Shown: positions 6,813 to 58,964 of the stretch, one piece after another | Position numbering within the stretch: the first letter of the stretch is position 1 | Layout: each line of letters opens with the position of its first letter | Assembly (NCBI GenBank): GCA_963920525.1 | Contig: OY986438.1 | Location: forward strand, 189,664,962 to 189,728,961 | Reading direction: 5' to 3' | DNA length: 64,000 bases | Source: Dichetophora obliterata | Taxonomy: Eukaryota > Arthropoda > Insecta > Diptera > Sciomyzidae | Program-made: the position numbers and the translations under genes | Notes under the pieces: model-generated | Told to the model about the DNA's origin: nothing | Database searches by the model: none | The model's input: only the letters and a program-made list of their open reading frames with translations

Positions 6813-7170
6813 CGTTGTATTATCAAGTTTTACTTTGTTTAGAAATAATTTACTAAATCGTTTGTTATCGTTCATGTGGAATTTACGGCAGAAACCACAG
6901 CATACTACTGAAGAGTTGATGTAGCTATCAACGAAATAGTCTGTCTAGTCTGCTTGGTGGTCTGTTTTGCAAAGAACTTGTTGTTGCAACCTGTTGCTTC
7001 ATTAACATATTTGGCATTAAGCTCAGATGAATTGAGCTCAAAAATTATTTTTTTTAGTTAGATGTATAAAAATAAAATCATGCATGCTTATTTATTGTTT
7101 TTTCGTTTAGAAAATATCATTTTATTTTTCATTCAAATAAAATTTTGCGAATCAATTATTGTTTATAAAA
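6813..7170 (+). mobile_element. Possible 3' LTR of the copia remnant
   Basis: A purine-rich tract (GAGGAGG) directly after the RNase H remnant is followed by TTGTATTATC, where copia-type 3' LTRs normally start. A TATA-like TGTATAAAAATAAAA lies at 7061. No second LTR is present, so the right boundary cannot be fixed. Confidence 0.3.
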
Positions 7171-38806: not shown

Positions 38807-39030
38807 TAGTGTTATGCTTTAACCTCGGCAAGCATTTCCAGCTCTCAGTTGTTCTTGTCCTTTAATTCCACATTTCTCCTCAATTTTGCTGTGGATTTTT
38901 TGTTTCAATAATTCTTAAATGTAGTAAAGAACAAAGAAAGCGAAAAGAATCTTGCCCGCACCCGGATTCGAACCGGGAACCTCTAAGTTGATAGTCTAGC
39001 TCTATTGTCACTAGACTACAAAGGCCGACA
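38807..39030 (-). mobile_element. tRNA-derived SINE, copy 1
   Basis: On the minus strand: tRNA-like head starting GTCGGCCTTTGTAGTCTAGT, A box TAGTCTAGTGA, B box GGTTCGAATCC, then a non-tRNA body (TTCGCTTTCTTTGTTC .. GGACAAGAACAACTGAGAGC .. GGAAATGCTTGCCGAGG). The second copy at 49385-49610 matches over its whole length, so this is a SINE and not a tRNA gene. It lies inside the hAT remnant. Confidence 0.85.
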
Positions 39031-40886: not shown

Positions 40887-41811
40887 CAGGGTTGTCAATA
40901 TTCGAAGCGCCCATCTGGCAACACTGTAACTTTCCGCAGTGATGCCAAATCGACTAATGACATACCGCGTTTGAAGCGTCATTCCAAGCAAATGTTTACA
41001 ATGGAACAGTACACGCCACGCGAACGCTCTAAAATTGTTGAAATTAACATTCAACAAAACAAGTCAATAGTGAAAACTCAACTCAATGAGCGATGAAGCT
41101 CATTTTCAGTTGAACGGAACGGTAAACAAACAAAATTGCCGTATTTATGCCACTGAAAATCCACAAGAGATTCAAGAGGTACCTCTTCACGATGCAAAAG
41201 TCACTGTTTGGTGCGGCGTTTGTGCTAAAATGCTCATTGGGCCGTTCTTTTTCGAATGGCCACAGAGTTGCTGTCAATCAGGAGCGTTATCGCGATATGA
41301 TAAACAATTTTTTCATGCCAATCGTTCGTCGAAAGCGTATCAGGCACTACTGGTTTCAACAAGATGGCGCGCCACCACACACAAGCCACACTACAATCGA
41401 TTTTTTGAAGCAATTGTTCCCTGGCCGTTTGATGTCAAAAAATGGTGATTTCGATTGGCCGCCAAGATCACCAGATTTAACGCCTCCAGACTTCTTTTTG
41501 TGGGGTTATTTGAAATCAAAGGTTTACGTCAACAAGCCAAAGACCCTAGAAGAGCTGAAAACCAACATCCGTCAAGAAATAACCGCCATTCCCATCGAAA
41601 TGTTGAAGAAAACCATGGAAAATGCTGCAAAACGGGCACAATATGTCGTAGAGGCCAATGGCGACCATTTACGAGATATCATATTCAAGAAATAATGTAA
41701 GCAAATCTACTTGAACCCATTTAAATGATATTCATGACGAACAGACAAAAAATTGTGGTTTCTTTGATTTATTTAAAAATAAAATGGGCGCTTCGAATAT
41801 TGCCAACCCTG
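40887..41811 (+). mobile_element. Mariner-type element (DD41D), internally deleted
   Basis: Ends CAGGGTTGTCAATATTCGAA and inverse TTCGAATATTGCCAACCCTG. TA precedes the left end; the right flank is TG, a decayed TA. The subterminal CATCTGGCAACACTGTAAC is shared with the copy at 58035-58964, but the bases just before it (GAAGCGCC versus GACGGACC) distinguish two subfamilies. Confidence 0.9.
41001..41695 (+). pseudogene. DD41D mariner transposase, deleted and frameshifted
   Basis: Starts MEQYTPRERSKIVEI..KSIVKTQ (N-terminus), then a deletion removes the rest of the DNA-binding region and joins to SDEAHFQLNGTVNKQNCRIY, where the first catalytic D is kept. A small deletion near 41257 shifts the frame (GPFFFE to HRVAVNQERYRD). 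Then WFQQDGAPPHTS (second D) and RSPDLTPPDFFLWGYLKSKV (third D), with 41 residues between second and third acidic residues, hence DD41D. C-terminus GDHLRDIIFKK is intact. Cannot bind or cut DNA. Confidence 0.9.
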
Positions 41812-46478: not shown

Positions 46479-46905
46479 CAAGGTAGTCACTTTTTTCCAC
46501 TGCTCTTTAACATTTTTGTCTCAGACCTATTTAACATACAACGCGATATCCCAAATCTAGACGACCTAAAAATGTACCATGTTATTAAATCGGAATCAGA
46601 TGTAATTTACTTACAGTCGAAATCGGTCAACTCTTGAGCACTGGTGCAATCAAACTAAGCTTTATAAAATGTTAACAAATGTTAACAAATGCTGCGTAAT
46701 AACTTTCTCCCCTAAAAATTTAGTAACAAATTACAGTTACTTCCTCAATAGCAATAAACTTAAAAGAGTCAACTATATCGTTGATCTTGGAGTAGTCTTG
46801 GACAACAATTTGCGATTGATTTAAGATTGTGAGCTTTAGATCAAGTGAGTTTTCAAGAAGGCAACAACAACAACAACAACTCTGTATAGAGTCAATCACT
46901 TAGCT

Positions 46906-46954
46906 GACTAGACAGTCTGTTTCGGAAATCGCTACATATTCCTCATCAGTAGTC
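46906..46954 (-). ncRNA. Hammerhead ribozyme, left arm (mirror copy)
   Basis: Exact inverse copy of the right-arm ribozyme, so it is active only in minus-strand RNA. Core CTGATGA and GAA, stem I GACTA/TAGTC, stem II GGAA/TTCC, short stem III. Transcripts from either direction therefore contain one ribozyme and one antisense copy able to pair with it. Confidence 0.85.
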
Positions 46955-47251
46955 TTTGAGTGATTAAGCTGTGATCAACTCACTGTTTAAACTAGCATAT
47001 GAATGTGCAGATCCTCTAATTCATTCTTATGAATTATATGGCTGCGAACACCAATGAATATTGAAATAAATGAAGAAGCAACTAGAACAGATGGCAACCC
47101 TTGATAGAGTTGATGGCGGTGATCTAAAATGGCCTACTGCTTTGAAGTGTCATATGATTAGCAGCCATATAATTCATAAGAATGAATTAGAGGATCTGCA
47201 CATTCATATGCTAGTTTAAACAGTGAGTTGATCACAGCTTAATCACTCAAA

Positions 47252-47300
47252 GACTACTGATGAGGAATATGTAGCGATTTCCGAAACAGACTGTCTAGTC
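47252..47300 (+). ncRNA. Hammerhead ribozyme, right arm
   Basis: In order: stem I 5' strand GACTA (47252-47256); core CTGATGA (47257-47263); stem II GGAA .. TTCC with an ~11-nt loop (47264-47282); core GAA (47283-47285); stem III ACA .. TGT with a 3-nt loop GAC (47286-47294); H17 = C47295, predicted cleavage after it; stem I 3' strand TAGTC (47296-47300), perfect complement of GACTA. The very short stem III is characteristic of hammerheads in Penelope-like elements and retrozymes, which often act as dimers or in tandem. Confidence 0.85.
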
Positions 47301-48440
47301 AGCTAAGTGATTGACTCTATACAGAGTTGTTGTTGTTGTTGTTGCCTTCTTGAAAACTCACTTGATCTAAAGCTCACAATCTTAATTCATGTAATTATTC
47401 AATAGATCATAAAAACTAATTAATTTGCGATTCAACTTACATTATGATAAAATTGCATCTTAGGCTAGTAAACAACTTGGTTTTATAAAACGACGTGCAA
47501 AATAAAACTGTGCATTACTGCGCCCTCTTCTTGAGTATGTATGCATTATTTGAAATCCTGCCTTTGAATCACACAGTGAGAGACTTGAAGCTGTTCAAAA
47601 GCAATTCCTGCTTTTTGCGCTTAGGGACACGTATAACCCCTGTGAGTACAATATATTGCCTAATTATGATTATAGGCATAGTCTTCTGAACTTAATGCCC
47701 CTTTCTTCAAGAAGGACTTTACTTAGTGCATGTGTTACCTTCAATATCATTAACGGTGTTGTTGATAGCGAGTATATACAACAAGATACGATTTAATGAC
47801 CCGATCAGACGTACACGGCATACTTGACTATTAAATGATAAATAGATGCTGCAGAGATTCAATAATATCAGTGAGTACAATTCACCCTCTATGTCTAAAC
47901 TTACTTTTAAGAAAAACCTTTCCAAGTCCCTATTTCCGTCTTAATACCTTCCCTCACAAAACTAGGCTCCCAACCTGTGAATTTAAGCAAAATTTAAGTG
48001 TATTTAGGATAAATAACTTGGGTTAATAAATAAATAAATTCTTGGCTTCTTTATAAATCTTAATCTGCATTTAAGCATGCCTTCTCCAAGTCTCTTTTGC
48101 CTACTTAAATCCCAAAAATACTGCGCTTTTTCTTTATTGTCATTTTAGTCGTTAAGAATTAAATGCTAAGATAATAAATACTCTTTTTTTAAGAGAATCC
48201 CTTCCAATTCTCTATTCCCTTCTTAGATCTCTCCCATTTCTTAGCTATACATAATATGGTAGTATCTAAAGGTACTTTTATTCTTTTATTTTTTCCTTTT
48301 CTTTTTGACGTGTTCTTGAAATCATGTCATTTACGTGGGCGGAATACACCCATTTTGATTTGCATATCTTCCAAAACCATAACAAGGAAAGGGGTGAGGA
48401 AAAGAAAAAAAACCTGATAGAATAAGTAAATAAATATTAA

Positions 48441-49384: not shown

Positions 49385-49610
49385 TAGTGTTAAGCCTTAC
49401 CTCGGCAAGCATTTCCAGCCCTTAGTAGGTTCCTGTCCTTTAATTCTACATTTTCCACAATTTAGTTGTGGATTTTTAGTTTTCCATAATTCTTATATGT
49501 AAGAAAGAACAAAGAAAGTGAAAAGAACCATGCCCGAGCCCGGACTCGAACCAGGGATCTCTGGGTTGATAGTCTAGCGCACACTCCACTAGACTACAAA
49601 GGCCGACTAC
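49385..49610 (-). mobile_element. tRNA-derived SINE, copy 2
   Basis: Same head and body as the copy at 38807: minus strand GTCGGCCTTTGTAGTCTAGT, perfect A box TAGTCTAGTGG and B box GGTTCGAGTCC, body with CTTTCTTTGTTCTTTC and GGAAATGCTTGCCGAGG. The tRNA-like anticodon loop would read CTATCAA with an imperfect stem, and no proper acceptor stem forms, so it is not a working tRNA. Confidence 0.85.
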
Positions 49611-58034: not shown

Positions 58035-58964
58035 CAGGGTTGCCCATATTCGACGGACCCACGTTTTTTTTTAAAAAAATCAAAGAAAAAAATAAAAATT
58101 TGGCGGTTGGCAATCTTAATCATTTAATTTGTTCCAAGTAGATTTGTTTACATCAATTTTTGAATATGATATCTCTCAAATGGCCGCCTCTGGCGTTGAT
58201 GGCGTATTGTGCCCTTTTTGCAGCATTTTCCATCGTTTTCGCCAACATTTCGGCCGGAATAGCGGCTATTTCTTCACGAATGTTGTCCTTGAGCTCTTCT
58301 ACGGTCCTTGGCTTGTTAACGTAAACCTTTGACTTCAAATATCCCCACAAGAAGAAGTCAGGCGGCGTCAAATCGGGCGAACGCAGTGGCCAGTCCAAAT
58401 CATCACTTTTCGACATCAAATTCTTCAGAAAATCGATTGTTATGCGACTTGTGTGCGGTGGAGCGCCGTCTTGTTGAAACCAGAACTGCCTCATACGCTT
58501 TCGACGAATAATTGGCATCACAAAATTGGTCATCATGTCGCGATAACGCTCCTGGTTGATGGTAACAGCATGGCCATTTTCATTTTGGAAGAAAAACGGC
58601 CCAATAACCGTTTTCGCACTAACGCCGCACCAAACTGTGACTTTTTCGTCATGAAGAGGCACTTCTTGAATCTCCTGAGGATTTTCAGTGGCGTAAATAC
58701 GGCAATTTTGCTTATTTACGGTCCCATTCAATGTGCACTTCTCACATTTTTTAATCTTTTAAAAGCACGTTGAGTTTTCACAATTGACTTCTTCTGTTGA
58801 ATGTAAATTTCAACTATTTCAGAGCGCTCGCGTGGCGTGTATTGTTCCATGGTAAAAATCTGCTTGAACTGACGCTTCAAACGCGGTATGTCATTAAGCG
58901 ATCTGACATATCTGTCAAAAGTTATGGCGTTGCCAGATGGGTCCGTCGAATATGGGCAGCCCTG
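58035..58964 (-). mobile_element. Mariner-type element (DD41D family), second subfamily, TA TSD
   Basis: Ends CAGGGTTGCCCATATTCGAC and inverse of CAGGGCTGCCCATATTCGAC, flanked by TA on both sides (58033-58034, 58965-58966). Internally deleted like the 40887 copy but at different breakpoints. Confidence 0.92.
58153..58850 (-). pseudogene. DD41D-family transposase, deleted; C-terminal frame open
   Basis: Start ATG at 58850: MEQYTPRERSEIVEIYIQQK KSIVKTQRAFKRL, then a deletion and frameshift join to NGTVNKQNCRIY. From 58731 the frame stays open for 192 codons to GGHLRDIIFKN. It includes WFQQDGAPPHTS (second D) and RSPDLTPPDFFLWG (third D); the first catalytic D (SDEAHF) is deleted. Spacing between second and third D is 36 residues because five are missing relative to the 41-residue spacing of the other copy. 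Not functional. Confidence 0.9.

What the first reader, a model, noticed from the sequence alone, without database searches (positions are those of the whole stretch)
46818..47421. Perfect 225-bp inverted pair of hammerhead-ribozyme arms with an 11-bp TSD inside a LINE
Seen: two arms of equal length, no mismatch found, 115-bp spacer, 36-nt one-sided tail, TSD AATTTGCGATT, empty site restores the LINE frame. Each arm has a complete hammerhead (CUGAUGA, GAA, stem I 5/5 paired, short stem III). Known: Penelope-like elements and retrozymes carry such hammerheads in their terminal repeats and may have inverted pLTRs. Inference: a non-autonomous, inverted-arm ribozyme retroposon needing foreign RT. 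It is far younger than the surrounding decayed LINE, so the family may be active in this fly. The head-to-head design means every transcript carries a ribozyme plus its own antisense.
Basis: partly seen in the sequence, partly recalled or inferred. Interest (0 to 1): 0.92.

Follow-up and report, generated by a model that had tools for sequence, protein, structure and literature searches.

The report
Ribozyme retrozyme inserted from both ends
In what is likely a fly genome, a short non-coding mobile element built around a predicted self-cutting RNA carries the same two-ended insertion marks as Penelope-like retrotransposons of that genome, so those retrotransposons likely supply the enzyme that copies it, which would answer who moves such elements in animals.

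Summary
In detail: two 231-bp inverted arms (2 mismatches; inner 225 bp perfect), 36-nt one-sided tail, 11-bp target duplication in a decayed LINE, one complete type I hammerhead motif per arm. The arms are not a fixed design but one insertion product of an ORF-less family with a 578-bp tandem unit (retrozyme A; an exact 40-mer occurs 418 times). Copies mostly start at two RNA positions about 34 nt apart. In 20 of 20 copies with two arm starts, one arm uses the inner site and the other the outer; 16 of these have 10-16-bp target duplications. Arms of one insertion share non-consensus letters (12 versus permuted mean 2.5, 0 of 2000). The genome holds many Penelope-like elements (PLEs). The two whose ends could be read show the same pattern, and six of seven PLE start regions share with retrozyme A, and with a second retrozyme family, a compensated pseudoknot-like fold whose arm a' lies between the sites. 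Likely mechanism: PLE machinery primes on both overhangs of one cut from same-source RNA, and the two cDNAs are joined. Cleavage, circles and mobilisation are untested. Animal retrozymes are known and PLEs were already proposed as movers; this adds structural evidence and a testable RNA element.

The parts
46807..46817 (.). left target site duplication AATTTGCGATT
   Evidence: direct repeat with 47422-47432; flanks read on as one LINE frame
46818..47048 (-). left arm: retrozyme A cDNA begun at the inner start site (no tail), RNA sense on the - strand
   Evidence: 231 nt, 2 mismatches to the right arm; maps to unit positions 444->88
46894..46965 (-). type I hammerhead motif of the left arm
   Evidence: core CTGATGA/GAAA; stem I 5 bp plus outer 7 bp, stem II 4 bp, stem III 3 bp
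47049..47157 (+). spacer: part of the right cDNA, unit sequence that precedes the arm in the 578-bp unit, not a separate module
   Evidence: one alignment with the right arm, unit 328->128; centre junction overlaps by 1 nt
47158..47388 (+). right arm of retrozyme A
47241..47312 (+). type I hammerhead motif of the right arm, predicted cleavage after C47295
   Evidence: core motif intact in 54 of 58 arms
47363..47369 (+). predicted pseudoknot arm a (TGATCTA)
   Evidence: complements 47403-47409; compensated in PLE families
47372..47375 (+). predicted pseudoknot arm b (GCTC); its partner hairpin lies downstream of the outer start and is absent from this copy
47386..47421 (+). one-sided tail, the stretch between inner and outer start sites
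   Evidence: present on the right only; the right end maps to the outer site (unit 128)
47403..47409 (+). predicted pseudoknot arm a' (TAGATCA), between the two start sites
47422..47432 (.). right target site duplication
6876..7040 (+). copy of a second hammerhead family (retrozyme B) in the same window
   Evidence: hammerhead core at 6904-6949; 42 matches listed, 2424 candidates of which 40 scored

Best explanation
The palindrome is one insertion of a non-coding element family (an animal retrozyme with a 578-bp unit and a predicted hammerhead ribozyme) that was likely made by Penelope-type machinery priming on both ends of one staggered cut and copying same-source RNA from two fixed start sites. 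Shown by sequence: the family, its tandem unit, the TSDs, the two start clusters, their one-of-each pairing in the copies studied, shared letters between arms, and a matching architecture in PLEs of the same genome. Inferred: a PLE protein binds a pseudoknot-like element downstream of the ribozyme and cuts A/T-rich DNA with an overhang of about 10-16 nt. One 3' end starts cDNA at the inner site and the other at the outer site. Both cDNAs run up the RNA, round one or more units, stop at varied places and are joined by short overlaps or a few filler bases. The hammerhead is predicted to trim transcripts to 578-nt monomers that may be circularised; cleavage and circles are untested.
For: Family: 43 match rows = the window's two arms plus 38 other loci, 98-100% for full-length rows; 1267 first-look candidates, 40 scored. 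Exact 40-mer 418 times, reversed-pattern control 0. 578-bp unit without long ORF. Start sites: of 65 alignments of 60 bp or more, 29 start at unit 88-104, 27 at 124-134 and 9 elsewhere; stops are spread. Pairing: 20 of 20 two-start copies have one of each (12 inner-left, 8 outer-left; L015 and L022 assigned by hand because of later inserts); chance 9e-7 if ends were independent. TSDs of 10-16 bp adjoin the ends in 16 of the 20; the random-site control reached 10 bp in 7 of 300. Same source: 12 non-consensus letters shared between arms, permuted mean 2.48, max 8, 0 of 2000 (20 two-armed loci with 60 or more common positions, which include L046 and leave out L039). In one head-to-head array of 6+3 units all spacings are 577, and at its centre both arms carry the same three differences from the reference unit, one of which is in none of the 37 start regions. 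Partner: PLE frames of 847, 834, 898 and 865 aa counted stop to stop, with direct pLTRs and minimal hammerhead motifs; L048 and L049, the two with an inverted pLTR in the stretch fetched, have an inner left and an outer right end, read by eye. Shared RNA element in retrozyme A, retrozyme B and six of seven PLE start regions: 93.8% of cells paired, 9 of 14 pairs with two-sided changes, none of 500 shuffles reaches the covariation score. Whole-region shuffles: 0 of 400 for A (L019 copy), L048, L049, L051, L053 and L065, 3 of 400 for L066. The start region of A aligns to PLE L048 above all 500 shuffles. Inner start 12-14 nt before a', outer 14-18 nt after it, in A, L048 and L049. Literature: for an Anolis PLE, cleavage and extension of both strands, two internal start sites and the tail between them were shown in vitro (PMC11167929).
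Against: No experiment. No Rfam hammerhead match and the MFE fold is not the hammerhead. PLE L050 does not fit the RNA element (24 of 400 and 93 of 300 shuffles), nor do two mutated retrozyme copies, L015 and L011 (102 and 31 of 400). The best of 580 background windows scored 32, equal to L048 and close to L066 at 33. The descriptor was drawn after seeing A and the first PLEs; only family B was fresh, its loop is 9 nt not 8, the descriptor was widened for it and its hairpin came from another locus than a/a'. The paired segments were picked for complementarity, which flatters its controls, and L050 was left out. Mean arm-to-arm distance did not differ from random pairs (1841 of 5000). Tandem units within L009 and L019 differ in haplotype, which a single monomer circle would not give. 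17 of 39 loci have only one arm start, and L020, L031, L035 and L046 carry an inverted piece that does not end at a start site. The loci are the best matches to a complete arm, not a random sample. In Anolis the start site did not appear to differ between strands, so the one-of-each rule is not reported there.
Confidence: 0.78

Rival explanations
1. Snap-back (self-priming): a single cDNA or antisense transcript folds on itself and is copied, giving inverted arms, as proposed earlier for rotifer PLEs.
For: Head-to-head arms are common in PLEs and were explained this way for Adineta (PMC3846280). Arms share letters, which a snap-back would also give.
Against: A copied arm should include the tail; instead exactly one arm has it in 20 of 20 two-start copies. 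The two arms stop at unrelated unit positions, with overlaps of 1-5 nt in 10 and gaps of 1-31 nt in 10 of 20 junctions.
Confidence: 0.08
2. The family is not a retrozyme but the pseudo-LTR (or an internally deleted form) of an unseen autonomous PLE, moved in trans by its parent.
For: Same layout as PLE pLTRs: hammerhead, start sites, tail, pseudoknot-like element; sequence similarity to L048 at the start region.
Against: Tandem unit of 578 bp with no long ORF; arrays of 6+8 and 6+3 evenly spaced units; no PLE-like frame seen in the flanks of the 20 loci of 9.9 kb; none of the four PLEs read in full matches the unit beyond short simple stretches; its stem III has 3 bp with a loop, unlike the minimal PLE motifs read here. 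Only four of many PLE copies were read in full.
Confidence: 0.1
3. Two separate single-arm insertions landed next to each other, or a DNA-level inversion made the palindrome.
For: Single-start copies exist (17 of 39 loci); L015 and L022 hold later inserts.
Against: One TSD brackets both arms in 16 of 20 two-start copies; inner/outer pairing in 20 of 20; shared letters.
Confidence: 0.03
4. Assembly artefact or a chance palindrome.
For: Long palindromes are a known source of assembly error (general knowledge).
Against: 38 further loci with their own flanks; the arms differ by 2 bases and their cDNAs extend unequally.
Confidence: 0.01

Closest known systems
Animal non-LTR retrozymes (Cervera and de la Pena 2020, PMC7229834; parts 1-4 of 6 read)
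   Same: Type I hammerhead, tandem units, no ORF, low GC, TSDs longer than 4 bp, PLEs in the same genome
   Different: Unit 578 bp (they report RNAs of about 170-400 nt); head-to-head two-start insertions, a tail rule and a PLE-like start element are not described in the parts read; there PLEs were only proposed as the mover
Penelope-like elements with GIY-YIG endonuclease (Frangieh 2024, PMC11167929, parts 1-2 of 4 read; rotifer PLEs 2013, PMC3846280, passages and Discussion read)
   Same: Tail of about 30-40 nt on one of two inverted terminal copies, TSDs of about 8-10 bp in the rotifer examples, A/T-rich targets, two internal RT start sites, hammerhead
   Different: No RT or endonuclease is encoded; the whole unit is non-coding
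Plant LTR retrozymes (PMC4918200, search listing only; features as described in PMC7229834)
   Same: Non-autonomous, hammerhead-bearing, circular RNA intermediates proposed
   Different: Type III hammerheads, LTRs with PBS and PPT, 4-bp TSDs

Membership tests
Animal non-LTR retrozyme | type I hammerhead motif in each unit | tested here: met
   core in both arms, intact in 54 of 58 arms, stems compensated in family B by eye; Rfam did not call it
Animal non-LTR retrozyme | tandem repeats of one unit, no protein | tested here: met
   578-bp unit without long ORF; evenly spaced arrays
Animal non-LTR retrozyme | unit about 150-450 bp, GC below 45-50% | tested here: inconclusive
   GC 34.3% fits; length 578 exceeds the reported range
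Animal non-LTR retrozyme | TSD, when present, longer than 4 bp | tested here: met
   10-16 bp in 16 of 20 two-start copies
Animal non-LTR retrozyme | no LTR, primer binding site or polypurine tract | not tested
   no dedicated search was run
Animal non-LTR retrozyme | self-cleavage and circular RNA in tissue | not testable with these tools
   no RNA data
Penelope-like element | ORF with telomerase-like RT and GIY-YIG | tested here: not met
   no long ORF in the unit; none seen in flanks of 20 loci
Penelope-like element | tail on one of two inverted terminal copies | tested here: met
   20 of 20 two-start copies; it inserts like a PLE without being one
PLE identity of L048-L051 | RT and GIY-YIG domains | tested here: met
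   Pfam RVT_1 over cut-off in L049 and L051, GIY-YIG below cut-off in L050, no family in L048; L048 aligns end to end with L049 at 55% and with L050 at 30%; nearly all listed L048 homologues carry PF00078, PF26215 or PF28514, and the named ones among the 120 listed of 228 are from flies

The most novel reading that the evidence does not exclude
Retrozymes are the SINEs of Penelope-like elements. Both carry the same RNA element, a pseudoknot whose arm lies between two template start sites, and insertion by this telomerase-related machinery uses one site per DNA strand on same-source RNA, so that it is a two-ended stitching of two cDNAs rather than one-sided target-primed copying.
Probability: 0.5. 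Interest if true: 0.9.

Novelty: new variant of a known kind. Interest (0 to 1): 0.82.

Why it matters
In the two 2020 papers I read in part, the enzyme that moves animal retrozymes was not shown and PLEs were named the likely candidate. The matching ends and shared start element make that directly testable with purified protein and RNA. The one-of-each rule would constrain how PLEs, whose RT is related to telomerase, use both strands of a cut. My library searches (retrozyme with Penelope-like and insect since 2020; hammerhead with Penelope and target priming; Penelope with pseudoknot; PLE RNA structure since 2023; dipteran or head-to-head hammerhead repeats) listed no paper that by title or abstract start describes this; most subscription papers are not held, so this is not proof of absence.

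Tried and rejected
Rfam and MFE folding did not recover the hammerhead; the miRNA and sRNA rows lie below those families' gathering scores and follow the long hairpin, so they were set aside. PF01541 gave one genome match, read by eye as an SLX1-like host gene, not a PLE. PF26215 is not in this Pfam copy. A DNA pattern for a recalled PLE motif found 0; a hammerhead pattern in viral contigs found 0. Mean arm distance could not tell shared from separate templates; shared letters could. A first, unweighted descriptor was swamped by A/T helices; the re-weighted one is, and it was widened for family B. A possible retrozyme-PLE chimera at L057 was not shown: the stretch after the retrozyme has no significant match to the four PLEs read, and the rest could not be fetched. 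In one search one pair 959 bp apart was not counted as an array. A genome count of one array's 23-mer was asked 15 times and never answered.

Full report
What is in the window. At 46818-47421 lies a 604-bp insertion bounded by an 11-bp duplication inside a decayed LINE. Its 231-bp arms are inverted with 2 mismatches; the inner 225 bp are perfect. Each arm holds a type I hammerhead core with 5 bp plus an outer 7 bp in stem I, 4 in stem II and 3 in stem III.

It is a family. The arm finds 38 further loci, all the other places listed by a search in which 1267 candidates were seen and 40 scored. I fetched all 38. They are the best matches to a complete arm, so the sample favours young, complete copies. 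Tandem copies give a 578-bp unit (one of three units read has 581) without a long ORF. An exact 40-mer from the start region occurs 418 times. A second family, B, lies in the same window at 6876-7040 and has 42 listed matches and 2424 candidates; its hammerhead stems are compensated relative to A, read by eye.

Two start sites. Numbering the unit from the predicted cleavage site, 65 alignments of 60 bp or more start as follows: 29 at 88-104 (inner), 27 at 124-134 (outer), 9 elsewhere; their other ends are spread. Of 39 loci (38 plus the window) 20 have two starts, 17 have one (8 inner, 8 outer, L021 at 108), and L038 and L040 fit neither. L015 and L022 were put among the two-start copies by hand, allowing for later inserts of about 1.6 and 3.1 kb. 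All 20 have one inner and one outer end, on either side (12 and 8). If ends were independent the chance is 9e-7. Direct repeats of 10-16 bp adjoin the ends in 16 of 20; in L015 and L022 similar repeats are seen by eye only, and L026 and L027 have none clear. The control reached 10 bp in 7 of 300 random pairs. The arms meet with 1-5 nt overlap in 10 copies and with 1-31 nt of other sequence in 10.

One source for both arms. In 20 two-armed loci with at least 60 common positions (these include L046 and leave out L039), arms of one insertion share 12 non-consensus letters; permuted pairs share 2.48 on average, at most 8, 0 of 2000 reaching 12. Total arm distance does not show this. The listed part (about 100 of 418 places) holds ten arrays; the four with more than one spacing (12, 7, 3 and 2 spacings) are uniform within, and arrays differ between 577 and 580. 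One array has six units one way and three the other, all at 577. At its centre both arms carry the same three differences from the reference unit. Yet tandem units in L009 and L019 differ in haplotype, so at least some templates were multimers or were switched.

The likely partner. A PLE probe gave 149 match rows in the genome, 142 of 2808 candidates scored. Four PLEs were read: open frames of 847, 834, 898 and 865 aa counted stop to stop, pLTRs, minimal hammerhead motifs. Their identity rests on Pfam RVT_1 for L049 and L051, a sub-threshold GIY-YIG in L050, a 55% end-to-end match of L048 to L049, and database relatives of L048. L048 and L049 have an inverted pLTR and show an inner left and an outer right end, read by eye. 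An Anolis PLE cuts and extends both strands in vitro and starts at two internal sites that bound the tail. In rotifer PLEs the tail is described as optionally present on one of the inverted pLTRs. So the asymmetry is known in outline; its strictness here and its presence in a retrozyme are what I add.

A shared RNA element. Downstream of the ribozyme, retrozyme A has arm a (TGATCTA), b (GCTC), the inner site, a' (TAGATCA), the outer site and a hairpin TGGC[AGAGCACG]GCCA whose loop can pair with b. I looked at 24 PLE upstream pieces: four from the PLEs read and 20 further stretches. Six of the 20 hold the whole region (L053, L054, L058, L059, L065, L066) and L069 part of it; the rest show other sequence there. 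With near-identical copies dropped (L054, L058, L059), seven were tested: L048, L049, L050, L051, L053, L065, L066. Six fit, L050 does not. L066 has one mismatch in b, and the L048 hairpin has 2 bp. Helices are compensated: a is GATC, GACC or GGCC with matching a'; b is GCTC, GCCC or CCTC with matching loop. Shuffling whole regions gave 0 of 400 at the observed score for A (L019 copy), L048, L049, L051, L053 and L065, 3 of 400 for L066, 24 of 400 for L050; the mutated copies L015 and L011 do not fit; 580 background windows reached at most 32, the score of L048. With the widened descriptor L048 and L066 are each reached by 3 of 300, L050 by 93, B by 1, the others by 0. The descriptor was made after seeing A and the first PLEs; family B was the fresh test and fits with a 9-nt loop, from pieces of two loci. 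The start region of A also resembles L048 in sequence (score 28 against a shuffled maximum of 19.5; L065 is no better than shuffles). This fold is a prediction.

Reading. The simplest account is a retrozyme moved by PLE machinery, with both 3' overhangs of a cut priming on same-source RNA at one site each. The palindrome, the tail and the spacer of the finding follow from this. Papers: PMC11167929 parts 1-2 of 4; PMC7229834 parts 1-4 of 6; PMC3846280 passages and Discussion; PMC7761336 and PMC12910113 passages; others search listings only; two papers on PLE hammerheads are not held.

Noticed in passing
window 6876-7040: Second, more diverged hammerhead retrozyme family (B) just after a Copia-like 3' end (by eye); 2424 candidates in the genome and its own pseudoknot-like element.
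   Followed up: partly
G000 C1:138091214-138098959 and C2:24067325-24072131: Large head-to-head arrays of retrozyme A, 6+8 units at 578 and 6+3 units at 577, uniform within each array.
   Followed up: partly
L057 (C1:275383877-275384227): Retrozyme A sequence antisense and upstream of a truncated PLE; possible chimeric two-ended insertion, junction not read.
   Followed up: partly
G000 C3:157476766-157483188 and C1:157245696-157252110: PLE matches in direct tandem at 2946- and 2957-bp spacing.
   Followed up: no
window 38953-39025 and 49531-49603 (-): Two tRNA-like Rfam matches with similar 5' halves, perhaps a tRNA-derived SINE.
   Followed up: no
window 41126-41695 (+) and 58153-58758 (-): Two mariner-type transposase fragments, judged by eye from their translation.
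   Followed up: no
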